Source: Haliotis asinina (taxonomy: Eukaryota > Mollusca > Gastropoda > Lepetellida > Haliotidae). From it: DNA of 64,000 nt. A program made the translations under genes and the position numbers. Shown here in pieces: positions 6,418 to 58,830 of this stretch. The stretch spans positions 17,511,501-17,575,500 of the forward strand of contig NC_090291.1 of assembly GCF_037392515.1 (NCBI RefSeq), written 5' to 3'. The stretch's first letter is position 1; the number at the start of each line of letters is the position of its first letter. A model generated the notes under the pieces. It saw nothing but the letters and a program-made list of their open reading frames with translations. It did not search any database and was not told the DNA's origin.

Positions 6418-6656
6418 AATTCAAAGACACATAAAAACTTAACAAAGTTTAACGAAGTAATTTTGATGATTGATTATTCAATTTTGATGTATTGACATAC
6501 AGCATGAGCTTTTCATGGGTTGATATGACGCGCGTGAAGCTTGCACAGCGCACGTGCATTGCTTTAACCTCAACTTTCGAAAAATGCACTTTTTCCCTGG
6601 GGTGTTTACAAGCGCAGGTTGTCGATTGCATTCGGTTTTTCATTCATTTCAATGTC

Positions 6657-13946: not shown

Positions 13947-14145
13947 TCATATTGTATTGTCTAAATAGTGATATTAGTCTTAACCTTCCACACCAGTTTT
14001 ATTTCAAATTGTGATATTCTAGTTGTTTTACTGTTCTTCGTCGACAGGTTTTGTAATATACATGTAGTCCTTTTCATTGTTAACTGTTCACGTCACGATA
14101 AGGCTGCAACAGTGCGGAGGTGACGTTAAATATTAACTCACTCAC
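13947..14145 (+). repeat. LINE 3' tail, solo, plus orientation
   Basis: The end of the LINE 3' UTR (TCGACAGG motif, GTCAC/GTGAC hairpin arms, TTAAATATTAACTCACTCAC tail) without coding sequence. This is typical of a 5'-truncated insertion. Confidence 0.75.
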
Positions 14146-15153: not shown

Positions 15154-15694
15154 TGAGTCAGTGTGTGAGTTAAAATTTAACGTCACATCGGCAATATCTC
15201 AGCCATATCGTGACGAGAACATCTAATATCAATATCAATTATATGTCTACTATAAAACCTGTCAACGAAGGACAGTAAAACAACTAGAATATCATAAATG
15301 GAATTAAAACTAGCATTGAAAGTTAAAAACAACATCACCATTTGGACAATACACTATAAAATCAGGCTATAGATCGCCAACAACTGAAGGTAGATCACCA
15401 TACTAGGGACCATGGGGACTTACAGTACCTTTGCTACTCACATGGACCCTAGTTGGATTTACACCATCCCTTCAGCCGCTGGCGAGTGTACAATATGCTA
15501 GCCAAAATTAAAACAACAGGAATACCACGATTAAAACCTGGTAGACTTAAATTTACTATGAATGTTTTAGGACTTACTGGAGGACAATAGTTTTACGGTA
15601 CTTCAACCCCCTTGGGGGTACAGCCACTAACAATTCTAGTTACGAATCCACACTACCAATTATTAAAATACATCTTTTTGCAGAAACATATTGC

Positions 15695-20872: not shown

Positions 20873-21073
20873 GTGGGTGAGTAAGTTAAGTCTTACACCG
20901 CACTCAGCAATAGTCCAGTTATATGGCGGCGGTCTGTAATTAATCGAGTCTGGACCAGACAATCCAGTGATCAACAATATGAGCATCGATCTGCGCAATC
21001 TGGAACCGATGACGTGTCAGCCAAGTCAGCGAGCCTGACCAACCAATCCCGTTAGTGGCCTCTTACCCTGCAG
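20873..21073 (-). repeat. SINE, 5'-truncated (copy of 3211-3410)
   Basis: Same SINE fragment as in duplicate copy 1. About 60 bases present before the SINE in copy 1 (3168-3210) are missing here. Confidence 0.75.
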
Positions 21074-23549: not shown

Positions 23550-24050
23550 TGAGTGAGTGAGTTAATATTTAACGTCACATTGGCAATATTTCAGCCATAT
23601 CGTGACGAGAACATTTTGATACTGAAATGAAATATGTATACATTATAAAAACCTGTCGTCAAAGGACAGTGAAACAACTAGAATATCACATTTACAATTA
23701 AAACTAGTGTGCAGAGTTAAAACAAATACCACTATTGGGACAATACAACAACTGAAGGTAGATCACCATAGTAGGGACCATGGGGACTTACAGTACATGT
23801 GCTACCTACATGGACCCCAGATGGATTTACACCATCCCCTCAGCCATTGGCGATTATACTGAAAGTTAGCCATTATTAAAAACAACAAATATACTACGAT
23901 TAAAAGTTTGGTCGTACTAAATTTACATAGAATGTTTTGGACTTACGTACCCTCTCAGGAGGACAATAATTTTACAATACGTCAACCCCCCACGAGGGCA
24001 CAGCCACTAACAATATCAGTTATCAATGTAGACTACCAATAATAAAATAT

Positions 24051-29997: not shown

Positions 29998-30196
29998 TCA
30001 TATTGTATTGTCTAAATAGTGATATTAGTCTTAACCTTCCACACCAGTTTTATTTCAAATTGTGATATTCTAGTTGTTTTACTGTTCTTCGTCGACAGGT
30101 TTTGTAATATACATGTAGTCCTTTTCATTGTTAACTGTTCACGTCACGATAAGGCTGCAACAGTGCGGAGGTGACGTTAAATATTAACTCACTCAC
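29998..30196 (+). repeat. LINE 3' tail, solo, plus orientation (copy of 13947-14145)
   Basis: Same truncated LINE tail as in duplicate copy 1. Confidence 0.72.
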
Positions 30197-33748: not shown

Positions 33749-33849
33749 GACTGTTTGTGAGTGAGTGAGTTTAGTTTTACGCCGCACTCAGCAATATTTC
33801 AGCTATATGGCGGCGGTCTGTAAATATGATGATGATGAGTTAATATTTA

Positions 33850-33885
33850 ACGTCACATCGGCAATATTGCAGCCATATCGTGACG
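33850..33885 (-). promoter_or_regulatory. Predicted 3' hairpin of LINE C RNA
   Basis: Arms CGTCAC (33851-33856) and GTGACG (33880-33885) are complementary and enclose a loop containing GCTGCAATATTGC. The same layout with different complementary arms occurs at the 3' ends of two SINE families. It probably serves as the RT recognition site for target-primed reverse transcription (inference). Confidence 0.65.
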
Positions 33886-34383
33886 AGAGCATTTAATGAG
33901 TAATTAGGATAATACAAATGAATTAATAGCACTTACATTGTAAAACCCTGTCGACGAAGGACAGTAAAACTAACTAGAATATCACAGAGTAGAATGTAAA
34001 ACTAGTGAATAGACCTAAAACAATGCATCTATAGAGGACAGTACAATATAAAAATGAGCTATAGGTTGCCAACAACTGAAGGTAGATCACCATACTAGGG
34101 ACCATGGGGACTTACAGTACATTTGCTTCCTGCATGGACCCTAGTTGGATTTACATCATCCCCTCAGCTGTTAGCAATTGTAGACAAATCTAGCCATAAA
34201 CTAAAAACACACTTATTCTACGATTAAAAACATGGAAAACTGAAATTTACTTCAAATGTTTTTGGACTTATGTACCCTCTCAGGAGGACAATTGTTTTAC
34301 GGTACTTCAACCCCCTTTGAGGGTACAGCCACGAACGATTTGAGTTTCTAATTTAATCTTCCAATTTTAAAATATTTATCTAT

Positions 34384-37300
34384 TTACAGTTCAATTAACA
34401 AATCTAATTCCTTTAAAAACGCAATAATTAAATGAGGGCTAATATTGCTAAAAAGATCCTTCATAGTTTGTGAATTAAAATACTGATCCCTTGTGATGGA
34501 ATACTCAACACAGTCAAGCAAGATATGCTTGACTGTGATTCTTTCATCACAAGGGATGCAGAATGGAGGATCCTCACCTTTCAAAAGGTATTCATGAGTA
34601 TATCTCGTATGGCCAATTCGACATCGCCTCATAATGACCTCCTCAAATCTGGACTGACAACCCAAGTGGGTATAACCAATATAAGGTTTTATTGCATGTA
34701 ATTTATTTACACCCATTTGGGTGTCCCACCTCTTTTGCATCAGATCTCGGATATACGATCTAATTGTAGCTTTATAATCAGAGTATGGAATAAGAAGTGG
34801 TGTCACAGATTTGTTGAGAGCTGCCTTGGCAGCAAGATCAGCCATTGTGTTCCCGGAAATGCCTACGTGGCTGGGTAACCAACAAAAGACGATGTCGTAT
34901 TGGCCAGTGGCAAGATCATTATGCAATTCAATAATTTCAATTACAAGTGGATGTTTACATGAGAGGTTTTTAATTGCCTGGAGGCAAGAAAGAGAATCGG
35001 AATAGATAATATACTGTTTATGTGTAGGATGTCTTTCAATATATTTAAGAGCCGTTAATATGGCGTTTGCTTCTGCTGTGAAAATAGAACTATTATCTGG
35101 TAATCTGAAAGATATTGTTCTGGATCCAATGACAGTTGCACAAGCCACTGCGCCACCATCCTTGGACCCATATGTAAATAAAGATTTGTATGTATTATAG
35201 TTACTTTTTAATTGATTATATTCTTGTTTATATTGTAATTCATTTGTTTCTGATTTCTTAAACCTCGTCAGTGTTAGGTCAACTTCGGGTCTAACTAACT
35301 GCCAAGGTGGAGACGAAAGTAGACGGGAAGGAGATATATTTTCTAGCTCAATGCCGCAAGCAGACAGAAAAGGTTTTACTCTAAGTCCCAGAGGCGGAAC
35401 AAGAGAAGTCTTTTTATTGTATAAATCCACATAAAGAGGATTAAAAACACAGTTAAACGCAGGGTTGGCCTCATTAGAATACAGTTTTGTTATATACTGT
35501 AAGGAGAGTTTTATACGTCGTTGAGTAAGAGATGGCTCATCGGCCTCGACGTAAAGACTGTCAATAGGAGAAGTTCTAAATGACCCAAGACATAGTCTTA
35601 GACCTTGATGGTGGATAGAATCAAGTATTTTGAGGTTGCTTTTACAGGCTCCACCATAAACGATGGAGCCGTAATCAAGTTTCGAACGGATGAGAGATCT
35701 GTATAAGTGGAGTAGGGTAGTTTGGTCTCCTCCCCACTTTGAATTGGAAACAACTTTTAACAGATCAAGTGCCTTCAGGCATTTAGTTTTAAGGGATTTA
35801 ATGTGGGGTAGAAAAGTTAGATGTGAGTCGAAAATAAGACCCAAGAACCTGGCCTCCTTTACTACTTTGATGGGGGTGCCATTTAAAAATAGTTCTGGAT
35901 CTTTATGCGGTTTATACTTTCTGCAGAAATGCAAACAATTTGTTTTTGTTATCGAAAATTTAAACCCGTTTTCAAGAGACCATTTTTCAATTTTATTGAG
36001 ACAAATTTGTAATTGCCTCTCTATTGTATGCATATTTCTACCTCTACAAGAAACATTAAAATCATCCACAAATAGTGATCCATCTACTGAATCACTTAAA
36101 ACCTTAGAAAGACTATTGATTTTAATACTAAATAAAGTCACAGACAAAATACTGCCTTGTGGAACACCCTGATCTTGATGAAAGTAGTCTGAGAGGGTTG
36201 TTCCCACACGTACTTGAAACTGTCTGTCATTTAAGAAATTGGATATAAACTGAGGCAAGCGACCTCTCAACCCAAAAGAATGTAAATCTTTCAAAATACC
36301 ATGCTTCCAAGTAGTATCATATGCTTTTTCGAGATCAAAAAAGATTGATACTGCATGTTGTTTTTTAATGAAAGAATTTTTTACAAATGATTCCAAACGA
36401 ACCAAGTGGTCAATTGTGCTTCGGTTTTTACGAAAACCACATTGTATATCAGTAATCAGACTGTTGGTTTCCAAAAACCAAACTAAGCGATTATTTACCA
36501 TTCGCTCCATGGTTTTGCAAACACAGCTAGTTAAGGAAATAGGTCGGGAATTTGATGGATCTGTATGATCCCTCCCAGGCTTTGGAATAGGAACAACTAT
36601 GGCTTTTCGCCATGAAGGGGGAAAATGTTGTGTTATCCAAATATGGTCAAAAATGCCAAGTAACGTTTCGAGACATGATTCAGGCAAGTGTTTTAAAAGT
36701 TGGTAATGGATATCATCAGGCCCTGTTGCAGTATCGTGAGCCTGTGATAGCGCAGTATGAAGTTCATGTAATGAAAATACCTCATTATAATCTTCACCAT
36801 TATCAGATTTAAAATTTACTGGTTTCTTCTCTTGGTGTATTTGAAAAGTCTGGAATTTTGGATGATAATTTGAGGAGGATGAATGTTTAGCCAAAGTGTC
36901 ACCCAACTTGTTTGCAATATCAGATTTTTCAGTTAGTATGTTATTATCATTTTTGAGATGCTGAATACTGCTGGATTTCAAACCCTTGCCTTTAATTTTT
37001 TGGATCATATTCCATACCCTTGACATAGGAGTACGGGAATTTATTTTGGAAACGTAATTTTTCCAAGTATGACGTTTAATGTGTTTAAACGTTCGTCGAG
37101 CTTTAGCGTAACTGATTTTTACATTATTTAAGTTATGAACAGTGGGATGAAGACGAAAATATTTCTCTGCTTTCTTCCTCTTCTTCCTAGCCTGTTTGCA
37201 TTCATCATTAAACCATGGTTTACGGATGTGCGGATTTACAGAGGACTTAGGAATAGTTTCATCAGCTATATGTTTTAGTTTGTCAGAGAACATTTTAATT

Positions 37301-38073
37301 GGATCAGGGACATCCATGAAAAGGTCTGGTTTAAGTTCCATAAGGCAGGTGGCCTGAAATAATGGCCAATTAGCCTTTGAAAAATTCCATCTTGTTACAG
37401 GCGGATCATCGGAAGGGTTAATTGCTGTAAGTACTGTAGGAAAATGGTCACTACCACAAAGATCATTATGGACTGACCATTCAAACTCATTATAAACGTT
37501 TGAATCAGTGAGTGACAGGTCTAAAGACGAATATGTTCCCGTTGCAGGATGCAAATATGTGTCAGAGCCATCATTGAATATACATAAATTATTATCAGAT
37601 ATAAATTCTTCAAGAACTTTCCCTTTACTGTTGGTATCAGGACTTCCCCATAATGGGTTATGACCATTGAGATCACCCATTATGATACAGGGTTTTGGTA
37701 ATTGGTCATACAAATCTTGAAGATCATTCTGATGGAGAATGGAAGAAGGGGAGATATACAAGGAACAAAGGGTAAGGGTTATATGTAAAGTAAGACGAAC
37801 AGCAACAGCCTGAAGATTGGTTTTAAGTGGAACAGGGCTATGAATAGTACCATGTCTCACCAATATGGAAGATCCACCAGTGGCTTTGTCACCAGGGGGT
37901 GAAAAAGAATGATAAGAATGGTATTTACGCAATTCGAATTTATCAGTTTGTTTCAAGTATGTTTCTTGAAAACTAAATGCTGATGGTTTATAATCCTGTG
38001 CTAGTAGTTGTACTTCATTAAAATTGGTCCTAAGTCCTCTGCAATTCCATTGGATTAAGGAATTACTGTTCAT
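34384..38073 (-). CDS. LINE C ORF2: endonuclease, reverse transcriptase, RNase H (1229 aa)
   Basis: Replication protein of the retrotransposon, acting by target-primed reverse transcription. The AP-endonuclease spans residues 1-215 with N10, E37, D134/N136 (GDLNGH) and D209/H210 (SDH), all intact. The reverse transcriptase (about 430-720) has RPISLTS, GFRKNRST, FFDLEKAYDT (D580), QGVPQGS and FVDD (668-671). RNase H lies at about 965-1085. Its expected TDGS motif reads TYGS: codon 35172-35170 is TAT, so the first catalytic Asp is Tyr968. The later acidic residues (TAEAN, SDSLS, MADLAAK) remain. A C-terminal CIPCDE...HILLDC motif could bind zinc. Presence of RNase H places it in the I superfamily rather than Jockey or CR1. 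The start ATG overlaps the ORF1 stop (ATGA). Whether it still transposes without its RNase H activity is open. Confidence 0.95.
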   Translation of the reverse strand: MNSNSLIQWNCRGLRTNFNEVQLLAQDYKPSAFSFQETYLKQTDKFELRKYHSYHSFSPPGDKATGGSSILVRHGTIHSPVPLKTNLQAVAVRLTLHITLTLCSLYISPSSILHQNDLQDLYDQLPKPCIIMGDLNGHNPLWGSPDTNSKGKVLEEFISDNNLCIFNDGSDTYLHPATGTYSSLDLSLTDSNVYNEFEWSVHNDLCGSDHFPTVLTAINPSDDPPVTRWNFSKANWPLFQATCLMELKPDLFMDVPDPIKMFSDKLKHIADETIPKSSVNPHIRKPWFNDECKQARKKRKKAEKYFRLHPTVHNLNNVKISYAKARRTFKHIKRHTWKNYVSKINSRTPMSRVWNMIQKIKGKGLKSSSIQHLKNDNNILTEKSDIANKLGDTLAKHSSSSNYHPKFQTFQIHQEKKPVNFKSDNGEDYNEVFSLHELHTALSQAHDTATGPDDIHYQLLKHLPESCLETLLGIFDHIWITQHFPPSWRKAIVVPIPKPGRDHTDPSNSRPISLTSCVCKTMERMVNNRLVWFLETNSLITDIQCGFRKNRSTIDHLVRLESFVKNSFIKKQHAVSIFFDLEKAYDTTWKHGILKDLHSFGLRGRLPQFISNFLNDRQFQVRVGTTLSDYFHQDQGVPQGSILSVTLFSIKINSLSKVLSDSVDGSLFVDDFNVSCRGRNMHTIERQLQICLNKIEKWSLENGFKFSITKTNCLHFCRKYKPHKDPELFLNGTPIKVVKEARFLGLIFDSHLTFLPHIKSLKTKCLKALDLLKVVSNSKWGGDQTTLLHLYRSLIRSKLDYGSIVYGGACKSNLKILDSIHHQGLRLCLGSFRTSPIDSLYVEADEPSLTQRRIKLSLQYITKLYSNEANPAFNCVFNPLYVDLYNKKTSLVPPLGLRVKPFLSACGIELENISPSRLLSSPPWQLVRPEVDLTLTRFKKSETNELQYKQEYNQLKSNYNTYKSLFTYGSKDGGAVACATVIGSRTISFRLPDNSSIFTAEANAILTALKYIERHPTHKQYIIYSDSLSCLQAIKNLSCKHPLVIEIIELHNDLATGQYDIVFCWLPSHVGISGNTMADLAAKAALNKSVTPLLIPYSDYKATIRSYIRDLMQKRWDTQMGVNKLHAIKPYIGYTHLGCQSRFEEVIMRRCRIGHTRYTHEYLLKGEDPPFCIPCDERITVKHILLDCVEYSITRDQYFNSQTMKDLFSNISPHLIIAFLKELDLLIEL

Positions 38074-39281
38074 TTAATAGCAGGTGGTAGTACTGGGGAC
38101 CGACTTTTCCCCTTCCGAGGCGAACTGCTTCTATTTCGCGCACGGGGATGAGGAGAGACGTCCATGTCTTCTAAAAGTTGAAACTTGTTATAGACTTGTA
38201 CAGGATCACGTGATCCCTTTTGTACTCGATCAGATTTTTGTCTATAATCTACTTTATGACAAGGATTTTTCACTGCAGGAGATATTGTTTGTGATTCAGT
38301 CTGGCAAACTGATGTTGCATGATTCTTATCACCATCAGAATCTGTTGTGCTTAAAGTTTGTTTGTCAGCTTTGACCCAGGTGATATCTGTCTGACATGAA
38401 ACAGACAGCACAGATTTAACATGAGGGCGAGCAACGACAGCAGAGTATGTTATACTTGATGACTGAGGCAAGGCTGCATTTACTAAACGTTTTGCCTCAT
38501 GATAGGTGACATTCTTTTGAGTTTTGATTTTGATAATTTCATATTCACGTTTCCAGATTTCACATGACTTTGATGAAGACATATGGTCTCCCAGACAATT
38601 AACACATTTTGGAGAAGACAAACAGTCAGAACCTTCATGATCTTCTTTACCACATCTGTAGCATGTTGCACGATTCCTGCAAGATTGGGCACCGTGACCA
38701 AACTTTTGACACTTGTAACAACGAAGTGGATTTGGAATATATTGCTCCACTTCGATATTACAATATCCAGCCTTGATACACTTTGGATGTTTCGGTTGTG
38801 AAAAAGAAATCAAATAAGTATTTGTATTGAAAGTTTCTCCATTTTTCTTAAAAGTGAATCGTTTGACATGAGTGACTCCTTGATTTTGTAGTTCAGTGGC
38901 GATTTCCGTTTCACTCATGTGGGCAAGCCACCGGTCCCTGTCTCTCAAGATGCCTTTGCTGCTGTTCAAAGACTTATGGGGTGAAACAGATACTGCAGTA
39001 TTAGCAAGCTGTTTTGTACCTATGAGGGTAGCTGATTGTTTCGCTGTTTTACACTCTATGAGGAGAAACCCAGATCTAATTTTTGTAACAGCTTGGACAT
39101 CCCCAAAAAGCCCATAAATTGCTTTTGATGTGGCAAATGGATTGAGTTTTAGAGGTTCACCGTCAGCAGAAGATACAACCAAAAATCTGCTCCATGTATC
39201 CGGTAATCTGTTTGTAGCACTGTCCTCGTCCGAGGACAAACACTCATCTAGTGCTCGTTTGTGTTTTTTGGGTTGAGCCAT
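38070..39281 (-). CDS. LINE C ORF1: Gag-like RNA-binding protein (403 aa)
   Basis: Nucleic-acid-binding protein that packages the element RNA. A basic N-terminus (MAQPKKHKRALDE) leads into an RRM-like region (about 25-180). Three CCHC knuckles follow: CYKCQKFGHGAQSC, CYRCGKEDHEGSDC and CVNCLGDHMSSSKSC. A Ser/Thr-rich tail ends in a basic RNRSSSPRKGKSRSP stretch. ATG 39281 is chosen because the protein resembles the other ORF1 copies from there; the open frame runs further upstream into the UTR. Its TGA overlaps the ORF2 start by the ATGA arrangement at 38073-38070. There are no frame breaks, unlike the four other ORF1 copies in the window. Confidence 0.93.
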   Translation of the reverse strand: MAQPKKHKRALDECLSSDEDSATNRLPDTWSRFLVVSSADGEPLKLNPFATSKAIYGLFGDVQAVTKIRSGFLLIECKTAKQSATLIGTKQLANTAVSVSPHKSLNSSKGILRDRDRWLAHMSETEIATELQNQGVTHVKRFTFKKNGETFNTNTYLISFSQPKHPKCIKAGYCNIEVEQYIPNPLRCYKCQKFGHGAQSCRNRATCYRCGKEDHEGSDCLSSPKCVNCLGDHMSSSKSCEIWKREYEIIKIKTQKNVTYHEAKRLVNAALPQSSSITYSAVVARPHVKSVLSVSCQTDITWVKADKQTLSTTDSDGDKNHATSVCQTESQTISPAVKNPCHKVDYRQKSDRVQKGSRDPVQVYNKFQLLEDMDVSPHPRARNRSSSPRKGKSRSPVLPPAIK

Positions 39282-39870
39282 GGTTAATAATAGAAAGTTC
39301 ACCATCCCAGCTCCCCACCCTCCACCGAGTATCACATGGACAATGCTATATACCAGTGGCTCTCCGACTGGCAGCACCAAGGATACTGGAATGGTATACT
39401 CCAGCAGAAGACTAATTAAAACTTAATCGATCCACCAGATTGGCCCATGAGCCACCGCCTTCTGGGCATAAGACTCTAGGCAAAGTTCATAACGTCAGTT
39501 TTCAAATCTAAAAGTTATATATGAATGAAAAAGCCAAGGCCAAAATTGAAACAGTACATCAAATCTGTGCAATTACATCAATAATCCACGCACAGGGCTT
39601 GGCATGACCAGCCGATTGGTCGAATCGGGCCCATTCGACCACCCGTCTAGGCGAAGTCAGGGCCAAAGTGGTGTATTGAGCAACAGGAACACGATTGCAG
39701 GCCCCTATTGCCCTCAACCACCAGGATCCCCTCCTCCGCCGACACAGGGCCGCAACCCACGGCAAACGGGTTGGTGGACCAAATATCCCCCCGGGTCCAC
39801 TACGGGGGTGTCGGCGAGCTCTTGGCGTTACCCAGCACCCACCACGAGGAGGTGGCTCGCCACGGGTGCC
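39282..39870 (-). promoter_or_regulatory. LINE C 5' UTR with presumed internal promoter
   Basis: GC-rich leader with the 5' terminus GGCACCCGTG, identical in position across five copies. A small hairpin (CCACC/GGTGG) lies near the end. Promoter activity is expected for full-length LINEs of this type but is not shown here. Confidence 0.55.
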
Positions 39871-40104
39871 GGTCTGTAAATAAGCGAGTCTGGACCAGAA
39901 AATCCAGTGATCAACAACATGAGCATCGATCTGCGCAATTGGGTACTGATGACATGTGTCAACCAAGTCAGCGAGCCCGATCCCGTTAGTCGCCTCTTAC
40001 GAAAAACATAGTCGCCTTTCATGGCAAGCATGGTTTGCTGAAGGCCTATTCTACCCCGGGACTTTCACGGGTCGACTGTTTGTGACGCGTTTTAATACAA
40101 GTGA

Positions 40105-40500
40105 ACAATGACTACATTAAAACTCAGAACCTAATGGATTACAACATAAACTGAACCATAATCTATTAACAAGTGAATACAACAATTACAAATCCTTATT
40201 TACAGATGGCCCGAAGGATGGTTGCGCAGTAGCTTGTGCCACTGTCATTGGATCCAGAAGAATATGTTTTAGATTACCGGATAGTAGCTCTGTTTTTACC
40301 TCAGAAGCAAACGCCACAATGACAGCTCTTAAATATATTCAAAAACATCCTAAACATAAACAATGCATAATATTTTCTAACTTTATTTTTCTTGCCTTCT
40401 GACGATTATAAATCTGTCTTGCATGCATGCACTTTTAATTTACATTATTAAATTGTATAATGATTTTGCTGCTGGCCAATGCGACTTCGTCCTATTTTTA
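40105..40500 (+). pseudogene. LINE ORF2 fragment (RNase H), plus strand
   Basis: Old fragment of the same LINE family in the opposite orientation. Its RNase H start reads FTDGPKDG, keeping the catalytic Asp that LINE C has lost, followed by SRRICFRLPD and TSEANA. After about 40450 the homology decays. It lies directly outside the SINE target-site duplication. Confidence 0.8.
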
Positions 40501-41501
40501 TTCGCTTACTTTATAAAATATAATAAAAGATATTTCAGTACGGATATGCAACAAAACCGGAAAGTCAACTTTCAAGGCAGTCGGTAGGAATTGACACATT
40601 AATGAGTTTCTAAAAAATATTGATTCATCAATGAAAAAGAGATTTTCATAAGATTTATAAAATAAAAAACGTTCATATATTGTAAATTCACACTAGACTA
40701 ATATTCAAAAATAGAACAGCATAAGGGGGTGGGGGCGGGTAACTCTGGCTTAGAACATGATAAATGCTTGTGCGGACAAAATATCATAAACTATCATTAG
40801 AAGCAAGATAAAAGGAAATAACTGCGTAAAATAAATGCGCGCTTGTATTGTCACATTCCTTGGCATGCGGTATGCACACAAACAAAGGTATCAAAGCTCT
40901 TTAAAAACACGCGGTATGCAAAAATATCTTAGACTGAATGGGACATTCTTTGAAAACTGCTAGATCGGGTGGTAAGATGTTGCAATTGTAGTTTTCTTTG
41001 TATACCTGAAGACTCCTGGAACACCGAAATGATCCTGTACAGATAAAATAGGTTTGGCAAGAAGAAATATCTGGATTCATCTTTTATATATTCATTGCTT
41101 ATACACTTGCAAAAACTCTTGTTTACCTATGTATATACGATATATGTGTGATTCATGCAAGATGTGTACGCACGATTTGTAATGTCATATATATATCTTC
41201 TGTTTTACTTGTGTGTGACCTGGATGATTAGTCTACAATAAACGTTCTGATCGTAAATACGATAAGAGCCTTTGCACATTTGTACATTGTGACCAATACG
41301 TTATCACACTAGTCCAGGCTTGTCCTGAAAATGTGTTTTGCATTTTGCACATTGGAAATGTTGAGGAATACCATGTTTATGGAATTTCAGTTTTTATAAC
41401 AAAGGTTATATTTACTAAAACTCACCCATTTTGGTCAAAGACATGTGCGAGGAGTTTTGCTTTCTTGTGATAGCGAACATTTTCCTTCACGAAAGTTAAA
41501 G
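40501..41501 (+). other. AT-rich sequence with no gene recognised
   Basis: One kilobase with no long open frame, clear repeat or RNA gene. A GGGGGTGGGGGCGGG run lies near 40725. Confidence 0.5.
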
Positions 41502-42232
41502 AGTTTAATTCGCTCTGACAAGTAGCTTTGGTGTCCATCAGATATGTGAATATGAGTTATGAAACATGTGCATACTCATTACTCTGGAATAATGCTGACT
41601 CGTACCACTAACTACTACTCACGCATTCATTCTCATACAAGCAGAAACCCAAATCACGAAAATTAAACGTGTGGGATTAAGATTGTTAAAGAGTGTCTAT
41701 AGATGCACATTGTCTGTTGTCGAAGTAGGCAACACGATCTTTAGAGTATGGATGAATGTGTGTCTGTCGCAACCTGATACAGGCGCCGTGGTCAACAGGG
41801 TCTCAAGATGTTGAATATAAACAGATGCTCAGTGTCACTGTCTCGATGTTCAGCTACTGGGTGTTGTTGTCAGCCCAGAATACGATCTCCAGATGCTTCA
41901 TTTTGACAGCTGGGTAAAAAGATATTCGGACACTAGCTTATTTCGGACACTGCGTATTTCCTGATCAAAACCTTCAGACTGTGCAGGCGTACTGTGGCGT
42001 GGTGTAACAGCCCGTTGCTCTCTCTTTTGATGACACATGTTTACAGATTGATATATATTTATATATATACAGAGAGAAGAAGAAAATGAAAATAACAAAT
42101 AACTATAGAATACATAAATAACCCATCTCCCAAATAATGGGGGTTGTATAAATGATTATTTTGAATATTTTTTCTAAAAAGAGTAAACAGAATAATCATC
42201 AAATCCTGAATGATTACCGCCCTGCAGCATAA
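41502..42232 (+). repeat. Block X, copy 2, with the empty LINE A/D site
   Basis: 41502-42068 matches 14586-15153. The sequence then continues without interruption into sequence equivalent to 20758-20870 and 3041-3210. This is the pre-insertion state of the LINE A/D site. The AT-rich junction around 42040-42080 has itself drifted (ATATATATTTATATATATAC). Confidence 0.82.
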
Positions 42233-42450
42233 GTGAGTGAGTGAGTTAGTGAGTTAGTGAGTTACGTTTTACACCGCACTCAGGAATATTCCAGTTATAT
42301 GGCGGCGGTCTGTAAATAATCAAGTATGGACCAGACAATCCAGTGATCAACAACATAAGCATATATCTGCGCAATTGGGAACCGATGACGTGTCAGCCAA
42401 GTCAGCGAGTCTGACCAACCGATCCCGTTAGTCGCCTCTTACCTGCCGCA
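42233..42450 (-). repeat. SINE, 5'-truncated
   Basis: GAGT-rich tail, hairpin region CCGC/GCGG and the shared body ending at GTCGCCTCTTAC. Counterpart of the SINE at 3211 and 20873. Confidence 0.75.
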
Positions 42451-43319
42451 TAAATATTTACGATACTGAAATGCCTTGGTCGCATTGTTAAAACAATACT
42501 GAAGAAGGACTAATCATTTGCTGCACCTAAAACATATTCTCTTTTAATTAATATCTACAAACTCGGAACCATGCTACCACAACTATTTTACATCTCATTC
42601 ATATATCTCAGCCCGTTTCACGGCTTTAGAATTAATTTTTGTAAACAATTCTATATTACCCTATTAATTTGTCGACGAAACCTGGGATCTCTTTGTGCTG
42701 TATGTACCGGGCGTGTATTTTGCTTCTTATACTGTTATTTCTTTCTTACGTGCTTTCTGCTTCAATTTGATTCTTCAGCTAACAACTTGGTAAACCATTT
42801 TCAGGTATTTGATAGTGGTGTCACTATCAGTTACAGAATCCGTTGATCCTGATTGAAAATTGAGGCCTCGTATGCATTACAATGTCCAGAAGTTGCATGT
42901 AAACATATTCATCACTTACACTAACACGTGGTGGGCAATGAAGCGCCGATGTATGTGCACTGCACTTGTAGTTGATGAGGCAGTGAAATATGAGGGGAGT
43001 GGTATTCAAACACGTTCCGATGAACAAATCTCCCCAAAACATTATACAGAAAGGATTAATTATACCTTTGAGAAACTTATTGGGATAGTGGGGCTATCTT
43101 GAGCAATCCTAATTAAAGATATCGATGGACATATACCTATCACACGTCACTCACTGAATCAATTTTTCTACCGAAATAAAAGTGATATGCAAGTATTAGG
43201 GCACATCTAATACAGCCGATAACATTTCAGATAAAAGGACTGAAGTTGTTCATTAAACAAGCAAAGCCTCGGGATCATTACTGCTTTATTGGTCAAAACT
43301 AAAGTACATGTCGATATGT
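42451..43319 (+). other. Inserted sequence with no gene recognised
   Basis: Together with the repeats up to 46545 this is absent from the other two copies of the block. Short open frames of 70-90 codons have no recognisable product. Confidence 0.5.
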
Positions 43320-43440
43320 AAGCAGCCCCGTGATCAATAACATGAGCATTGATTTATGCAGTTGGATACGATGACATACCAGCAAAGTCAGCGAGGCAGA
43401 CCACAAACACGGTTTGCTGAAGACCAATTCTACGGTTTGT
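43320..43440 (-). repeat. SINE body fragment
   Basis: Matches the SINE middle and head (ATGAGCATTGAT, GTCAGCGAG, GGTTTGCTGAAG motifs). Tail missing. Confidence 0.6.
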
Positions 43441-43531
43441 TTTCACGTCTTTGTGAACCAAAATTGAACTGCAAACTGTTTATTTTTGTCAATATAGAAT
43501 TCTCTTTCTGACTTTAAGTTGTACTGGAGAG

Positions 43532-43670
43532 AATGAGTTAAGATTTGAAGTCACATCGGCAATACTGCAGCCATATCGCGATTGTAGCAATATACACTGT
43601 ATACTTAAATGAGGCATAAAATTATTTCGGAGAGTAAAACAATTAGGTTATTACAGATAGGACGTTACAC
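43532..43670 (-). repeat. LINE 3' UTR end, seed of the adjacent satellite
   Basis: GAGTTAAGATTTGAAGTCAC start with the degraded hairpin, then LINE 3' UTR sequence running straight into the first 105-bp satellite unit. Confidence 0.72.
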
Positions 43671-45140
43671 GTAGCATGTAAGCATTAAACATTATTACAA
43701 AACAGGACAATGCAACACAACAACTAGGCTTTAGGTCACCAATAGCTTACTAGAGATCCCCATACTAGGGACCATGTAGCATGTAAGCATTAAACATTAT
43801 TACAAAACAGGACAATGCAACACAACAACTAGGCTTTAGGTCACCAATAGCTTACTAGAGATTCCTATACTAGGGACCATGTAGCATGTAAGCATTAAAC
43901 ATTATTACAAAACAGGACAATGCAACACAACAACTAGGCTTTAGGTCACCAATAGCTTACTAGAGATCCCCATACTAGGGACCATGTAGCATGTAAGCAT
44001 TAAACATTATTACAAAACAGGACAATGCAACACAACAACTAGGCTTTAGGTCACCAATAGCTTACTAGAGATCCCTATACTAGGGACCATGTAGCATGTA
44101 AGCATTAAACATTATTACAAAACAGGACAATGCAACACAACAACTAGGCTTTAGGTCACCAATAGCTTACTAGAGATCCCCATACTAGGGACCATGTAGC
44201 ATGTAAGCATTAAACATTATTACAAAACAGGACAATGCAACACAACAACTAGGCTTTAGGTCACCAATAGCTTACTAGAGATTCCTATACTAGGGACCAT
44301 GTAGCATGTAAGCATTAAACATTATTACAAAACAGGACAATGCAACACAACAACTAGGCTTTAGGTCACCAATAGCTTACTAGAGATCCCCATACTAGGG
44401 ACCATGTAGCATGTAAGCATTAAACATTATTACAAAACAGGACAATGCAACACAACAACTAGGCTTTAGGTCACCAATAGCTTACTAGAGATCCCCATAC
44501 TAGGGACCATGTAGCATGTAAGCATTAAACATTATTACAAAACAGGACAATGCAACACAACAACTAGGCTTTAGGTCACCAATAGCTTACTAGAGATCCC
44601 TATACTAGGGACCATGTAGCATGTAAGCATTAAACATTATTACAAAACAGGACAATGCAACACAACAACTAGGCTTTAGGTCACCAATAGCTTACTAGAG
44701 ATCCCCATATTAGGGACCATGTAGCATGTAAGCATTAAACATTATTACAAAACAGGACAATGCAACACAACAACTAGGCTTTAGGTCACCAATAGCTTAC
44801 TAGAGATCCCTATACTAGGGACCATGTAGCATGTAAGCATTAAACATTATTACAAAACAGGACAATGCAACACAACAACTAGGCTTTAGGTCACCAATAG
44901 CTTACTAGAGATCCCCATACTAGGGACCATGTAGCATGTAAGCATTAAACATTATTACAAAACAGGACAATGCAACACAACAACTAGGCTTTAGGTCACC
45001 AATAGCTTACTAGAGATCCCCATACTAGGGACCATGTAGCATGTAAGCATTAAACATTATTACAAAACAGGACAATGCAACACAACAACTAGGCTTTAGG
45101 TCACCAATAGCTTACTAGAGATCCCCATACTAGGGACCAT
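43671..45140 (+). repeat. Satellite array, 14 units of 105 bp
   Basis: Unit starts at 43671, 43776 and 43881 recur every 105 bases to 45140, giving exactly 14 units without indels. Units differ mainly at one spot (ATCCCCATAC, ATCCCTATAC or ATTCCTATAC), in an order suggesting amplification of two- or four-unit blocks. The second half of each unit resembles the LINE 3' UTR (compare 34040-34110: AGGACA, CACC/GCCAACA, CATACTAGGGACCAT). Confidence 0.97.
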
Positions 45141-45303
45141 GTAGGTTGTATTCGAATGTTCGAATGTGACATAAGTTCCAGACGAATTCATGATCAATCA
45201 TCAATGAACTGTAGCTAGACCATGACCTTATGAATATTTAGTTATTACCTTTGCTGTAACGTTCGGCATTGTTAATCACAAGCTTCTCTTATTCCCGTGA
45301 TTC
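45141..45303 (+). other. Spacer
   Basis: Short AT-rich stretch; nothing recognised. Confidence 0.4.
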
Positions 45304-45917
45304 ATGCTGATGTTTCCTTCTCACATAACCCCTGATGTTTGTAATATGATTCATTCGTTGGTTTCACATTAATTTCAGACTCGCTGTGCGCATGTGCTCA
45401 GCGAGTAAAAATATTTACTGGTCAAATTCCGGTTTGGTCGTATGCTTACCGATAGTGTAAATACACTCAAAACAAAATGATTAAATAATAATTATTTACG
45501 AGTGACAACTCTTCATGGCTGACTAAATATATTGATTTACCTATGCTTTTAAGGTATTGATGTCCTATTTTAGTTGCACAGAACTGTGTCTTTTGATAGT
45601 AGTGAGAAGGGGATGTGCGGGAAGAACGGTGGTGGTGAGATGTGTTTATACAAGAACTATTTATTTCACTGCTCCCGGTCTTTTGTGCATACCGGTATAA
45701 AATAATTTGTAACAGACATAAAACTATGTATTTGATTTGATTTTTCGTTTTCTTTACGGTGTGTTTACACTATCAGTAAACGTACGACCAAAGCGGAACT
45801 TGACCAGTAGATATTTTTACACGCCCTGCGCACGCGCACAGCGAGTCTGAAATTAATGTGACACCAACGAATGCTGATATTTCCTTCTCACATGACCCCT
45901 GATGTTTATAATATGAT
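45304..45917 (+). repeat. Palindromic element inside 47-bp direct repeats
   Basis: Arms 45353-45466 and 45761-45872 are inverted copies (ATTCGTTGG, TTTCAGACTCGCTGTGCGC, TTTGGTCGTA and GTGTAAA motifs), separated by about 295 bases. Direct repeats of 47 bases with about three mismatches flank them (45304-45350 and 45871-45917). There is no coding capacity. It resembles a foldback or MITE-like element, though a 47-bp duplication is too long for an ordinary target site. Confidence 0.75.
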
Positions 45918-46545
45918 GTGTTAATATTTAGTTATTAAAGCTGCCCTTTTGCTTTGAAAAATATAATCTGCTTTTGTAACTACCTCTATTTGCATATTAA
46001 ATATAATCAGCTGGTGGTGTAATTCAAACCTTATAGATGATATATACCTGTCGCGATACGTCACTCTAAATAATTTAAACACTGTAAAACATATTTATTC
46101 AATATAACACAATTAGAATAATCAGTGTATCTGTATGAAGGCCGAAACACATTATCTAAGCTAAATTATTGGACCCTTGCAATCCACGGTCACAAAATAC
46201 GGGTCAGAGAACAGATGACCAAGTTAACCCGTGTCCCGTTCCTCAAAGCTGTCACAGCTGTACGACCACCACAAGTGAATGTTAAAGTACGGCAGCTACG
46301 GTAACCTTAGCACTACTCTCGCATTGTGGCACGGGACCTGGTGCGGTTTCGCGAGATGTAAATGTCAGCCCACAGCTTGCAGTGACTATGGCGTATTTAA
46401 GCCTGAACCAACACATAGAAGTTGACACAACAGGGCAACCATATGAAACATGATATTAATGAGATGGGATGCTAAAAAGTATAGTAACTCCAAAACCATC
46501 CATTTAGACATAGTGTCTTTAGTGGATGGTGATGCTCAGGATGAG
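45918..46545 (+). other. Sequence with no gene recognised
   Basis: About 630 bases, no recognisable gene or repeat. At its right end the block Y homology resumes. Confidence 0.45.
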
Positions 46546-48232
46546 CAACGGTATTTAAAAGATGAAGTCAGATTCTGATTTCAGAATGATATTCAAAGTT
46601 CACCACTGAGGACAATGTTGACAAAATACCCAATAAATTATCTAATGATCAAAGACTCATCACAATTAACACAACCAATATATTATTCATCACGCTTGTG
46701 AATAATCTTGAACATTTACGTCACTTTGTGGGAATCGTGAACTCTCTGTGACCACATATACTTCGAATCAGGCAAATTACTGGCAAACAAGGATAATTTG
46801 AACTTGCGCAGTAGACCGCCTACGATAAGTGGGTGGTACAAGGCAGTTAACAAGCCCATTTGGTTTGTGAATGGGAGAGTAGATGTAGGCTAGAGCAGAT
46901 GCAATGCATGACGATCAAGATTTAGCTGTACACGCCTTGCTCATAAGAATCTCACGTGGTCACGCTTGATCGCGGACAACCTGTGTTCCCTTTGCTCACA
47001 AGAACCAGTGGGAGGCACTCATAAATGCTAATACAGGTCAATTGTCAGGTCGGTGCTCAGCTTATCCGTGTTTGCCAGTAATTCTTATTTCGACCAACAA
47101 CATGCAGCTTGACATATTTTGGGCATACGAAACTTAACTCCAGATTGTAGTCAAAGCGAATTTGAACTCAATCAACTATCAGCACTGTCACAGGTATGCA
47201 TTCACCAAAATGTATATGAACGTTGACAATATTTACAGTGATCTATACAACATATTTTTCAGGAGGAGGCAGATTATAAGACGTCAAACATATTGGATGT
47301 TATTAGAAAAATTGTTCTGCATTGTTCTTGGCCTATTACGCCAGTGTAGATATTGCGTACTGTTACCGGCGAATTAATGATCGGGTAATGAAATGGAATG
47401 CAATGAATACGTGCATTTACCCATCATGTCGATGTGGTCATGGATTTGAGAATGTTTTTTATTACTTCTTTGAATGTCCATCATATATTGTCCAAGACAT
47501 AAACTGTTAAAGTAACTAGAAAATAGTGTTAAAAAGAACACTGAATGATACTAATCTTATCTTAGATGACAGTGCAGGTCTCTCTCCCACTCACTGAAAA
47601 TCAGAATGTTTCCAAATGTGTACATATTTTATACCTCTCAAACAAAACGTTTTCTCTGTTAACTTCTCTTTTACATATCTTAGCCCATGTCAGTCACGTG
47701 TGTATGTTGTTGAAAGATAATTGTGTAAATATTGGAAGAGAGCTTTTCAAAGTTGGATAATTTGTGTGAAATCCTTTTCGTGAATGAATGAAACATATTT
47801 CAATCAAATTACGTGCATTGGAGCACGGTTATCGCAATCTACCTTTGTATAGAACTGTTTCATACTATAAAATCACCATACATATATTACATTCTTCAAA
47901 ACAAATGTGTCTATGTGGAGTCATAACGCGGCAATAAAAGTGGGAACAGCATATCAAAAGTCTTTGAATTTCTTAAACGAGGTTTCATTTATTGGTGTCG
48001 GGTCACTTTGACATGACCTATTGATATGTGTGTTTCCAATTCGTTGTTGTGCCATGGCTAGCAACACGCTCCTGTTATCAATGCACACATTGTTGTGTAA
48101 CTAGCATGCGTGTATATTTCACCTGAATTTTGAATAAGACGTTTTAAACCGATGCATAAACTCTTTCAGAAGCTCTGAAATCTTTATTTGTGATATGTGT
48201 ATCAGATCAGCGTCACTAGCAACCAATAGTGT
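46546..48232 (+). repeat. AT-rich block Y, copy 3, upstream of alpha-tubulin
   Basis: Matches 3411-4930 and 21074-22590, with an extra ~130 bases near 46895-46990. Homology ends at CAACCAATAG (about 48222-48231), and the tubulin promoter region follows at once. The CCAAT word at the edge may be part of that promoter. Confidence 0.8.
47280..47512 (+). pseudogene. Possible reverse-transcriptase C-terminal zinc-knuckle remnant
   Basis: One frame reads CIYPSCRCGHGFENVFYYFFECPSYI. The C-x-C-G, E, YFFECP-x-Y pattern resembles the Cys/His motif after the RT of many LINEs (CxCG...E...HxxxxCPxY). Upstream frames are broken. It is a weak call from pattern alone; the other two copies of block Y have further changes here. 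Confidence 0.4.
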
Positions 48233-48369
48233 GCGAGTATCTGTTGTCACATGACTGGCAACGACACACTATATGTAAGGTTGATGTTTATCGTCACACC
48301 CATTCGTCTCCTCTCCCCAGACTCGTAACCGTCTTTGAGAGTGCAGTATCACCAGAATACTAAGCCATC
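48233..48369 (+). promoter_or_regulatory. Alpha-tubulin promoter and 5' UTR
   Basis: A TATA-like TATATGTAA at 48270-48278 is followed about 25-40 bases later by a pyrimidine-rich CACCCATTCGTCTCCTCTCC stretch suitable for transcription start. The 5' UTR then runs to the ATG at 48370. A CCAAT word lies near 48226. The start site is inferred. Confidence 0.5.
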
Positions 48370-50323
<1,954 letters not shown>

Positions 50324-50418
50324 ATGACTTTCACTGCAGAACGTTAAAGCAATTTGATTTTGTGCCATTGTTAAAGGTCTTTTCTTTCAAGTGAATCTAA
50401 ACTAAAGAAACACTGTTC

Positions 50419-50424
50419 AATAAA
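50419..50424 (+). promoter_or_regulatory. Polyadenylation signal AATAAA of alpha-tubulin
   Basis: AATAAA about 95 bases after the stop codon, followed by a T-rich stretch (TTGTTTTTTTCTGG). Confidence 0.75.
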
Positions 50425-50470
50425 CTTACCACCATTAAACTTTGTAATTCATTGTTTTTTTCTGGAAAGG

Positions 50471-50630
50471 TGAGTGAGTATGATTTTACGCCACCTTTAG
50501 CAATATTCCAGCAATATCATGGTGGGGTACACCAACCCTGGGCTTCATCTATTGCACCCATGTGTGGATTCGAGCCCGATTTCTGACGAAGGGATGCTTT
50601 AACCACTGGGCTATCCCGCAGCCCATTTCC
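50471..50630 (-). repeat. tRNA-derived SINE, complete
   Basis: The minus strand starts with a tRNA-like head (GGGCTGCGGGATAGCCCAGTGGTTAAAGC, i.e. box A), then box B-like GGGCTCGAATCC. It ends with the 3' hairpin (arms CCACC 50491-50495 and GGTGG 50521-50525) and a CACTCA tail. It lies just downstream of the tubulin polyadenylation site. Confidence 0.85.
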
Positions 50631-51341: not shown

Positions 51342-51600
51342 ATGAGTGTGAGTGAGTTTAGTTTTATACCACACTCAGCAATATTCAAGCTGTATGACGG
51401 CGGTCTGTACATAATCGAGTCTAGACCGGAGAATCTAGTGGTCAACAGCATGGGCATCGACGTAGCATGCATCGACGTAGCATCGACGTAGCATCGACGT
51501 AGCGTACACCAGCATGTAACTGGGATACGGTGACATGTGTCGACCAGGTCAGTGAGCCTAACCACTCGATCCCGTTGGTTGCCTCTTACGACGAGTCTGG
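51342..51600 (-). repeat. SINE with internal 11-bp expansion
   Basis: SINE of the same family as at 39871-40073. In its body CATCGACGTAG is repeated four times (about 51455-51500), a small tandem expansion of the SINE's own CATCGA stretch. Confidence 0.8.
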
Positions 51601-55319: not shown

Positions 55320-56640
55320 TTGTAAATATCATTGGTAATTGGAGAATGGCACAAATATACAAAATGATAAATATAATACATACATTACAGATGGGTCCAA
55401 GGATTGTGGCGCGGTGGCTTGTGCTATTGTCACTGAATCCAGAACAACCTCTTCTCGTTTACCATACAACAGTTCTATTTTTACAGCAGAAGCAAACGCC
55501 ATATTAACAGCTGTCAAATATATTAAAAGCACCCAGTATATAATCTTTTCTGACTCGCTTTCTTGCCTATTAAAAAAGTTTCTTTTTCTTGTAATCATTC
55601 GCTTTTAGTAGAAATGATTGAACTTTATGATGATCTTTGTCCTGGCCAATGCGACATCGTCTTTTGCTGATTACCCAGCCACGTTGGCATTTTTGGGAAC
55701 ACAATGGCTGACCAGCACTCACAAAATCTGTAACACTACTTCGTATTCCATACGCTGATTGCAAAGCTAGCATTAGAACCTACATCCGTGATCTAATGCA
55801 GAAGAAATGGGACACCCAGGTAGGCATCAATAAATTACCTGAAATAAAACCCAATATCGGTTACACCTACTTGAGTTGTCAGTCCAGATTTAAAGAGGTC
55901 ATGTCGTATTGGCGACACAAGATATACTCGGGAATGCCCATTGAAAGGTTAGGATCCTCTGTTTCGTATCCCTTGTGATGAAATAGTCCCGGTCAAGCAT
56001 ATCTTGCTTGACTGTGTTGAATTTTCCATCACAAGGGATACATATTTCCAACTCCGAACTATGAATGATATTTTAAATTCAGTTATTTCTCATTTAATTA
56101 TTGCATTTTAAAAATAATTAGATTTGTTACATGATTTGTAAATAGATACACATTTCATTTTTGGTAGTTTAGATTAGTAACTAATGTTGTTAATGGCTGT
56201 ATCCTCGAAGGGGGTCAACGTATCGTAAAATGATTGTCCTCCTGAGAGAATATGTAAGTCCCAAAACTTCCAAAAGTAGATTTAAACTTACCAGATTTGT
56301 AAAATGTTGTATGTTTGTATGTTTGGTTTAACATGTCCAACCATCGCCAGAGGCTAAAGGGATGGTGTAAATCCAGCAGTGGTGCATGCAGGTAGCCAAA
56401 GTAATGTAAATCCCCATGGTCCCTAGTGATCTACCTTCGGTTGTTGGCGATCTATAGCCTGTTTTAAATTGTATCATCCTCTTTAGTTAAAGTATTTTAG
56501 ATTACAGTGCTAGTTTTAAAGTATACATATCTGTGATAGTCTAGTTAGTTTTACTATCCTTTGTCGACAGGTAATTAAATTGATTACCTTGTATTCATCC
56601 CTATATGGTTGTAATATTGCTGATGCATTGTTGTACATAT
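55320..56640 (+). pseudogene. LINE ORF2 C-terminal remnant and 3' UTR, plus strand
   Basis: RNase H at 55339-55608 keeps ITDGSKD, TAEANA and SDSLSC, so its catalytic Asp is present. It is followed by broken frames for the CWLPSHVG region. A stretch near 55790-56100 matches the RDLMQKKWDTQVG segment and the cysteine motif, and then comes LINE 3' UTR sequence to about 56640 (CCTCCTGAGAG, GATCTACCTTCGGTTGTTGG). Many stops; ancient. Same family as LINE C in the opposite orientation. Confidence 0.85.
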
Positions 56641-58689: not shown

Positions 58690-58830
58690 ACGTCCCGGTG
58701 GGACTAGTGGTTAAAGCGTTCGCTTGTCACGCGGAAGACCCGCGTTCGATTCTCCAAATGAATGCAATATGTGAAGCCATTTCTGGTGTCCCCCGCTGTC
58801 ACATTGCTGGAATATTGCTAAATGCGATGC
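58690..58830 (+). repeat. tRNA-derived SINE with boxes A and B
   Basis: GGTGGGACTAGTGGTTAAAGCG (box A), GCGTTCGATTCTCC (box B), then CCATTTCTGGTGTCCCCCGC and TGCTGGAATATTGCTAAATGCG. It is the clearest single-copy relative of the 77-bp array unit. Confidence 0.85.

What the first reader, a model, noticed from the sequence alone, without database searches (positions are those of the whole stretch)
33780..50525. LINE and two SINE families share a 3' hairpin with compensatory stem changes
On the minus strand the LINE 3' ends read GTCAC, loop with GCTGNAATATTGC, GTGAC (LINE C 33852-33884, LINE D 15182-15214, LINE B2 23574-23606). The CCCGGG-headed SINE has GCCGC/GCGGC around the same loop (33781-33814). 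The tRNA SINE has CCACC/GGTGG (50491-50525). Three different but self-complementary stems around a conserved loop, followed by the same ACTC tail, argue for a selected RNA structure. SINEs are known in other animals to borrow the RT of a LINE through a shared 3' tail, so this looks like a recognition element for one LINE serving two SINE families.
Basis: partly seen in the sequence, partly recalled or inferred. Interest (0 to 1): 0.8.

Follow-up and report, generated by a model that had tools for sequence, protein, structure and literature searches.

The report
LINE and SINE shared tail hairpin
Three kinds of jumping DNA in this animal genome end in the same small RNA hairpin whose paired bases change together, which suggests that two short parasites borrow the copying enzyme of a long one by imitating its tail; the principle is known, this set is a new example.

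Summary
The hairpins are at the stated coordinates. Genome-wide, 53,616 places match the loop pattern, against 3 for the reversed pattern. One correction: the tRNA-SINE stem read in the window (CCACC/GGTGG) is a decayed, register-shifted copy; two fetched relatives read CGCCGT/GCGGCG. The genome adds two stems: a second LINE family (CATCGC/GCGATG) and a SINE1 subfamily (CGTCGC/GCGACG). Five family-level tails fold alike: 49 of 50 pair cells stand, and four of ten pairs changed on both sides. Dead LINE copies with one stem change are rarely compensated (5 of 100, 3 of 100, 1 of 50). CpG decay could explain two of three outer-stem changes, but not pair 3. The LINE hairpin diverges about 2-6 times less than its 3' UTR flank. 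LINE C lies inside a SINE1 copy, with target duplications of 13 and 12 bp. Best reading: a stringent-type 3' tail read by ORF2 of an I-like LINE and shared by two SINE families. RT recognition is inferred, and the SINE2-LINE link is weaker (71% over 41 bases, no BLAST match). New member of a known kind.

The parts
33827..39869 (-). LINE C, full length (6043 bp), inserted into a SINE1 copy with 13-bp target duplication TATTTACAGACCG
   Evidence: Junctions; SINE1 alignment broken at this place
34384..38073 (-). LINE C ORF2, 1229 aa: endonuclease, reverse transcriptase, RNase H
   Evidence: Pfam Exo_endo_phos_2, RVT_1, RNase_H above cut-off
38070..39380 (-). LINE C ORF1-like frame, 436 aa from a mechanical TTG start; CCHC-like knuckles
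   Evidence: zf-CCHC 17.8 bits, below the 20.8 cut-off
33851..33885 (-). LINE C tail hairpin CGTCAC/GTGACG
33780..33815 (-). SINE1 tail hairpin CGCCGC/GCGGCG
39870..40072 (-). SINE1 5' part with CCCGGG head (5' piece of the SINE interrupted by LINE C)
   Evidence: blastn, SINE1 positions 1-211; sequence
33758..33826 (-). SINE1 3' part, SINE1 positions 199-267, followed by target duplication TCACAAACAGTC
50484..50617 (-). SINE2 (tRNA-like head) copy, decayed
   Evidence: blastn 76.6% to the L049 copy; sequence
50489..50524 (-). SINE2 tail hairpin in family register (CACCAT/GTGGCG, decayed from CGCCGT/GCGGCG)
   Evidence: alignment
15181..15215 (-). LINE D tail hairpin CGTCAC/GTGACG; ORF2 fragment at 15695-16795
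23573..23607 (-). LINE B2 tail hairpin CGTCAC/GTGACG; ORF2 fragment at 24066-24901
5904..5938 (-). LINE B tail hairpin CGTCAC/GTGACG (duplicated copy of B2)
14091..14125 (+). LINE tail hairpin CGTCAC/GTGACG, plus strand, loop changed
30142..30176 (+). LINE tail hairpin CGTCAC/GTGACG, plus strand (duplicate of 14091)
55372..56630 (+). Decayed copy of LINE E, the second LINE family; its tail hairpin 56596-56630 is decayed from CATCGC/GCGATG
   Evidence: tblastn 66-73% to ORF2; separates with L048 from the other copies in the tree, support 98; sequence
3212..3404 (-). SINE1 copy
20874..21066 (-). SINE1 copy
42250..42442 (-). SINE1 copy
51348..51595 (-). SINE1 copy, in pieces
58705..58826 (+). SINE2 copy

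Best explanation
The last 60 bases of these elements are a stringent-type retrotransposon tail: an outer helix of six pairs, an internal loop, an inner helix of up to four pairs closed by G-C/C-G pairs that are the same in all five masters, a nine-base loop UGNAAUAUU, a short A-rich linker and a microsatellite, now (ACTC)n. Shown: the hairpin, its family-level covariation, its conservation in LINEs, and its presence in two LINE families and two SINE families. Inferred: ORF2 of the LINE (endonuclease, RT, RNase H) reads mainly the loop by sequence and the stems by shape, then primes reverse transcription on the terminal repeat at a nicked target. SINE1 and SINE2 carry a copy of the tail and so use the LINE enzyme. 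Because only pairing of the outer stem matters, stem sequences drift by paired changes while the loop stays.
For: Five family-level tails: 98% of 50 pair cells standard (shuffles reach this in 1 of 500), 4 pairs changed on both sides (8 of 500), covariation score 0.460 (0 of 500); sliding the partner drops paired cells to 16-60%. RNAalifold finds the same ten pairs on its own. In the 100 listed copies of a pattern that leaves the stems nearly free, pair 3 stands in 91 (2000 shuffles: mean 70.5, max 78) and pair 5 in 88 (mean 69.5, max 78). Dead LINE copies with one stem change are rarely compensated: 5 of 100, 3 of 100, 1 of 50. SINE1a and SINE1b differ in the outer stem only at pair 3, on both sides, in elements about 95% alike. 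LINE E differs from LINE C at pairs 2 and 5, both compensated, and is dispersed. Hairpin divergence between LINE copies 0.045-0.060 against 0.10-0.28 upstream. Target duplications: LINE C 13 bp, three SINE1 copies 12 bp. SINE1 tails match LINE tails at 77-84% over 47-66 bases by blastn. Precedent: ZfL2 loops are read specifically and stems can be swapped if they pair (PMC4176376, sections read).
Against: No protein-RNA or activity data. Only five family-level tails, so few independent events; the number of further pair types does not exceed shuffles (6 against a mean of 7.1; 474 of 500 reach it). Pairs 2, 4 and 6 show no excess pairing over shuffles in the 100-copy sample. Pairs 2 and 5 lie at CpG sites in both arms. 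In the simulation, if wobble pairs count, all six pairs still stand after two changes with probability 0.10-0.40, so 'still paired' alone is weak evidence; it also assumes an ancestor chosen afterwards. SINE2 gave no blastn match to a LINE tail at E 1e-3; it is 29 of 41 aligned bases identical to either LINE master, lacks one inner pair (U-U), and no target duplication was found for the window copy. The SINE1a and SINE2 stems match no LINE master exactly, so their donor LINE was not found. SINE2 as a family rests on two fetched young copies (L049, L050) plus listed tails.
Confidence: 0.76

Rival explanations
1. The stem differences are CpG decay alone and the shared hairpin is only inherited sequence without function.
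For: Pair 2 and pair 5 changes are CG>CA in one arm and CG>TG in the other, if the G-C form came first; the window SINE2 stem is largely such decay. With CpG sites 20 times faster, a stem stays fully paired after two changes in up to 40% of runs when wobbles count.
Against: Pair 3 (C-G against U-A) has no CpG on either side, yet both sides changed within SINE1. Dead copies with A at position 2 are compensated in only 5 of 100. One true double compensation has simulated probability 0.04-0.11, three together 6e-5 to 1.4e-3. The LINE hairpin is more conserved than its flank.
Confidence: 0.09
2. The SINEs were mobilised by a different LINE, extinct or not sampled, with a CGCCGC stem or an (AAAC)n end; the ACTC LINE is a relative, not the partner.
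For: SINE1a and SINE2 tails are closer to each other (36 of 42) than to LINE C (31 and 29 of 41); 23 exact SINE1a tails end TTAAACAACAA instead; no LINE-type tail with CGCCGC/GCGGCG stands among the 100 listed of 105 matches.
Against: Young SINE1 ends like the young LINE: 4985 exact matches of the TAAAACTAAAC type, followed by ACTC in the copies read; the loop is shared; L2-type LINEs tolerate stem swaps (PMC4176376). The six fetched AAAC-type copies are old, 70-84% to SINE1a outside one short stretch.
Confidence: 0.2
3. The hairpin acts in the element RNA for something other than RT recognition, such as transcript 3' end formation or stability, and is shared for that reason.
For: A 3' terminal hairpin could protect an RNA; the data here do not separate the two.
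Against: A conserved loop with variable stems is the known signature of stringent tails (PMC3747384 section 4.3; PMC4176376).
Confidence: 0.1

Closest known systems
ZfL2-1/ZfL2-2 and UnaL2 (L2 clade, fish)
   Same: 3' hairpin needed for retrotransposition, loop read specifically, stem exchangeable if paired (PMC4176376, sections read); UnaL2 paired with UnaSINE1/2 (Table 1 of PMC3747384, read)
   Different: L2 clade; here the LINE has RNase H and the hairpin has two helices and another loop sequence
LINE1-1_ZM with ZmSINE2/3 (maize and sorghum)
   Same: Hairpin with compensatory stem changes between LINE and SINE families and conserved loop bases; tail more conserved than the rest (PMC3747384 section 4.3, read)
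   Different: Plant L1 clade, (T)n end in ZmSINE2 (Table 2), loop UCU
Gecko SINE with I-74_AAe/MosquI (mosquito)
   Same: I-type LINE sharing its tail with a tRNA-SINE (row in Table 1 of PMC3747384, read)
   Different: Insect; one SINE family; whether it has a hairpin was not checked here
LINE/I and SINEs of the Pacific abalone genome
   Same: LINE/I reported as abundant and recently expanded, SINEs 5.11% of the genome (PMC5439488, passages)
   Different: The passages seen do not mention a shared tail or hairpin; that the present genome is an abalone is my recall-based inference
MESC, Snail, V and Meta SINE superfamilies of molluscs
   Same: Mollusc SINEs that share parts between families (recalled)
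   Different: Not compared here; the paper I tried to open is not held

Membership tests
Stringent-type LINE/SINE pair | LINE and SINE1 share the 3' end sequence | tested here: met
   SINE1 tail 77-84% to LINE tails over 47-66 bases by blastn
Stringent-type LINE/SINE pair | LINE and SINE2 share the 3' end sequence | tested here: inconclusive
   No blastn match of SINE2 to LINE tails at E 1e-3; SINE2 tail 78-88% to SINE1 tails; 29 of 41 aligned bases identical to LINE C
Stringent-type LINE/SINE pair | Same terminal short repeat | tested here: met
   (ACTC)n after the hairpin in LINE, SINE1 and SINE2 copies; an old SINE1 subset ends in AAAC/AACA units instead
Stringent-type LINE/SINE pair | Conserved stem-loop with paired stem changes | tested here: met
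Stringent-type LINE/SINE pair | RT requires the tail for retrotransposition | not testable with these tools
   needs protein and RNA assays
Stringent-type LINE/SINE pair | Insertions with target duplications, as from target-primed reverse transcription | tested here: met
   LINE C 13 bp; SINE1 12 bp in the window, L044 and L046; L009 at least 9 bp; none found for the window SINE2 copy, the only SINE2 tested
I superfamily LINE (I/Nimb/Ingi and kin) | APE endonuclease, RT and RNase H in ORF2 | tested here: met
I superfamily LINE (I/Nimb/Ingi and kin) | CCHC knuckles in ORF1 | tested here: inconclusive
   two stretches, E 0.0035, below the Pfam cut-off
I superfamily LINE (I/Nimb/Ingi and kin) | RT phylogeny within the clade | not tested
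   no reference RT set on hand
tRNA-derived SINE (SINE2) | tRNA-like head with internal promoter | tested here: inconclusive
   ARAGORN finds a tRNA-Asp-like fold in the L049 copy only at a permissive threshold; none at default
tRNA-derived SINE (SINE1) | tRNA-like head | tested here: inconclusive
   none at default; the permissive output for SINE1 was cut from view

The most novel reading that the evidence does not exclude
The tail hairpin is older than the terminal repeat it now feeds: SINE1 kept the same hairpin while its end changed from (AAAC)n to (ACTC)n, and its outer stem then changed by a paired substitution inside the SINE lineage itself (SINE1a to SINE1b). Selection on RNA shape would thus act on the parasite directly, and an I-like RT would read loop and shape while both stem letters and terminal repeat are free. 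This genome would be a natural series of stem-swap experiments for an I-type LINE.
Probability: 0.4. Interest if true: 0.55.

Novelty: new member of a known kind. Interest (0 to 1): 0.45.

Why it matters
Of the SINE/LINE pairs in Table 1 of PMC3747384 (2013), most have L2, CR1 or RTE partners and one is from a protostome. This is an abundant case with an I-like LINE, 40 of 150 scored LINE copies with long open frames (counted), two SINE families and five natural stem versions, so the rule 'read the loop, require only pairing in the stem' can be tested with natural sequences. It would also name a LINE partner for two SINE families; PMC10294476 (passages) says that donors were known for three of eight bivalve SINE families.

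Tried and rejected
Rejected: CCACC/GGTGG as the family stem of the tRNA-SINE. Rejected as a terminal tail: CGTCGC/GCGACG with loop GCCGAAATA(A/T)TGC (L025, L051-L054). It lies inside a longer repeat without an ACTC end, 11 of its 22 listed places in a 2.97-kb tandem array on C4; left out of the five masters. Led nowhere: tails of two distant LINE fragments about 25% identical to ORF2 (L011, L014); a decayed distant LINE in L013, whose tail (TGTCAC/GTGACG, changed loop) looks related but is too broken to count; Rfam at gathering thresholds on window 33001-56700 (no match); text search for six tail strings (three papers, unrelated by title). Not found: a LINE tail with CGCCGC/GCGGCG among the 100 listed of 105 matches; LINEs with a SINE-type inner stem were not searched for. 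SINE1b was not counted genome-wide: that search did not complete. A relaxed scan of the local sequences for similar hairpins gave 149 hits against 75 in reversed sequence, so its weak hits were not used.

Biases. The pattern fixes the loop except one base, a pyrimidine at the first stem base and G or C at the last base, so it says nothing about loop variation; its 100 listed rows are the first on contig C1. For the pair-5 null I first kept 40 of the 100 rows by hand (1 compensated); the recount by nearest master uses all 100: 50 nearest LINE C (1 G-C, 23 G-U, 26 unpaired), 47 nearest LINE E, 3 ties. In one search six of the eleven LINE copies had been found through a tail pattern (L001, L003, L006, L007, L008, L048); one search uses window copies and copies found by protein, though all had to match the tail with at most four substitutions to enter. 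Before the tree copies with under 300 aligned bases to LINE C and two named entries were removed; the hairpin was masked; the tree is unrooted.
Full report
What is there. The window lies in an animal genome of 1.14 Gb. That it is an abalone is my inference from recalled repeat content; no call names it. LINE C is intact: a 1229-aa ORF2 with endonuclease, RT and RNase H and an ORF1-like frame with weak CCHC matches. Of the 150 genome matches scored for the ORF2 C-terminus (23,357 candidates), 40 have frames of 1223-1248 codons (counted), so the family looks young. Of 15 stretches fetched beside such matches, 13 carry a CGTCAC/GTGACG tail about 500 bp past ORF2; one was fetched too short by my error (L029) and one lacks it (L040).

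Anatomy in the window. SINE1, the CCCGGG-headed element, is about 268 bp. Its copy at 40072 is interrupted by LINE C and resumes at 33826. LINE C is flanked by TATTTACAGACCG and the SINE by TCACAAACAGTC. The SINE hairpin next to the LINE hairpin is therefore a nested insertion, not a fusion. SINE2 at 50484-50617 has a tRNA-like head (permissive ARAGORN match in the relative L049 only). A copy of a second LINE family, LINE E, lies at 55372-56630.

Structure. Typed LINE and SINE1 tails fold into an outer helix of six or more pairs, an internal loop, an inner helix of four pairs and a nine-base loop; z-scores -2.5 to -3.7. The SINE2 family form keeps the outer helix but only two inner pairs (z -1.3). 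The decayed window SINE2 copy does not fold better than shuffles (z 0.25).

Family-level stems. A pattern that fixes the loop and leaves the stems nearly free finds 26,744 + 26,872 places, against 3 + 0 for the reversed pattern. The 100 listed copies and follow-up searches give five amplified masters: LINE C CGTCAC/GTGACG; LINE E CATCGC/GCGATG; SINE1a CGCCGC/GCGGCG; SINE1b CGTCGC/GCGACG; SINE2 CGCCGT/GCGGCG with a U-G pair. LINE E is a real LINE: L048 carries an ORF2 C-terminus 80.7% identical to LINE C over 218 residues, then this tail. Its pattern, which also admits the internal variant, has 109 matches; of the 100 listed 78 are LINE E-type and 22 the variant. SINE1b is SINE1: 95% to SINE1a over the whole element in L044 and L046.

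Covariation. On the five masters 49 of 50 cells pair; pairs 2, 3 and 5 of the outer helix and one inner pair changed on both sides; the covariation score is reached by 0 of 500 shuffles, the percentage paired by 1, the number of pairs changed on both sides by 8, the number of further pair types by 474; sliding the partner destroys pairing. RNAalifold returns the same ten pairs. In the 100-copy sample pair 3 stands in 91 and pair 5 in 88, above all of 2000 shuffles; pairs 2, 4 and 6 stand in 87, 91 and 88, within the shuffle range. These are copies, not independent events.

CpG decay. Pairs 2 and 5 lie at CpG in both arms, so decay could produce their A-U forms. Pair 3 does not. Dead LINE C copies give an empirical null: of 100 listed copies with A at positions 2 and 5 (146 in the genome), 5 have the T that pairs with position 2; of 100 listed with a non-T at position 3 (140 in the genome), 3 are compensated; of 50 listed LINE C-nearest copies with a non-A at position 5, 1 is G-C and 23 are G-U wobbles. 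In a simulation with CpG sites mutating 1-20 times faster, one double compensation has probability 0.04-0.11 and three together 6e-5 to 1.4e-3; but with wobbles allowed a stem stays fully paired after two changes in 0.10-0.40 of runs. It assumes the SINE1b stem as ancestor.

Conservation. Between eleven LINE copies the 35-base hairpin differs by 0.060 on average (55 pairs), against 0.176-0.283 in four 100-base stretches upstream. With 16 copies not found through a tail pattern the values are 0.045 against 0.097-0.183 over 120 pairs, and for five diverged ones 0.046 against 0.167-0.263. Of the six differences between LINE C and LINE E in the hairpin, four are the two compensated pairs.

Sharing. 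SINE1 tails match LINE tails at 77-84% by blastn, SINE2 tails match SINE1 tails at 78-88%, but SINE2 gives no match to LINE tails at E 1e-3; SINE2 is 29 of 41 aligned bases identical to LINE C, SINE1a 31 of 41. The link of SINE2 to the LINE thus rests on the shared loop, structure and terminal repeat.

Terminal repeat. Young SINE1a tails with TAAAACTAAAC number 4985 exact matches; those ending TTAAACAACAA number 23, and a relaxed pattern of that ending, whichever the element, 265. The six fetched AAAC-type copies are old: aligned stretches of 70-84% to SINE1a, one short stretch of 97%. The hairpin thus seems older than the ACTC end.

Mechanism. Shown: shared, folded, conserved, covarying tails in elements that insert with similar target duplications (SINE1 and LINE C). 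Inferred: recognition by the LINE ORF2. The closest tested case is zebrafish ZfL2, where the loop is read specifically and stems can be exchanged if paired (PMC4176376; introduction, one results section and one discussion section read). Compensatory changes in a LINE/SINE tail hairpin are already in print for maize and sorghum (PMC3747384 section 4.3, read), and tail sharing of an I-type LINE with a SINE for mosquito Gecko (Table 1, read). The finding is a new member of a known kind. Text search found none of six tail strings in a related paper, and the listed rows of six keyword searches show no paper on this pair by title; the lists are capped and most subscription papers are not held, among them the one I tried, so prior description cannot be excluded.

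Noticed in passing
window 1-33430: Large tandem duplication: features repeat at offsets of 17.66 kb (3228/20890, 5909/23578) and 16.05 kb (8834/24885, 11992/28043, 14102/30153). It carries neurotransmitter-gated channel-like frames at 11992-13101 and 28043-29152, with a diverged third at 32315-33430; Pfam was run on the first and third.
   Followed up: partly
window 52897-53647: Tandem array of ten 76-bp units made from an internal piece of SINE2 including the first part of its tail: a SINE-derived satellite.
   Followed up: no
L025, L051-L054; C4:10.72-10.75 Mb: A paired CGTCGC/GCGACG hairpin with altered loop sits inside a GATATC-rich repeat, partly in a 2.97-kb tandem array; origin unclear, perhaps a captured tail.
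   Followed up: partly
window 6492-7682: Long Tc1/mariner-type transposase frame, 396 aa, with HTH and DDE_3 domains.
   Followed up: no
window 49424-50323: Tubulin C-terminal exon-like frame beside the SINE2 copy.
   Followed up: no
L019:7627, L024:8634, L026:8357, L055-L060: Old SINE1 copies end in AAAC/AACA units rather than (ACTC)n with the same hairpin region: a switch of terminal repeat or LINE partner.
   Followed up: partly
L009:4808-4856: SINE1 insertion apparently truncated to about 55 bases of tail, flanked by a target duplication of at least 9 bp: 5' truncation as in LINEs.
   Followed up: no
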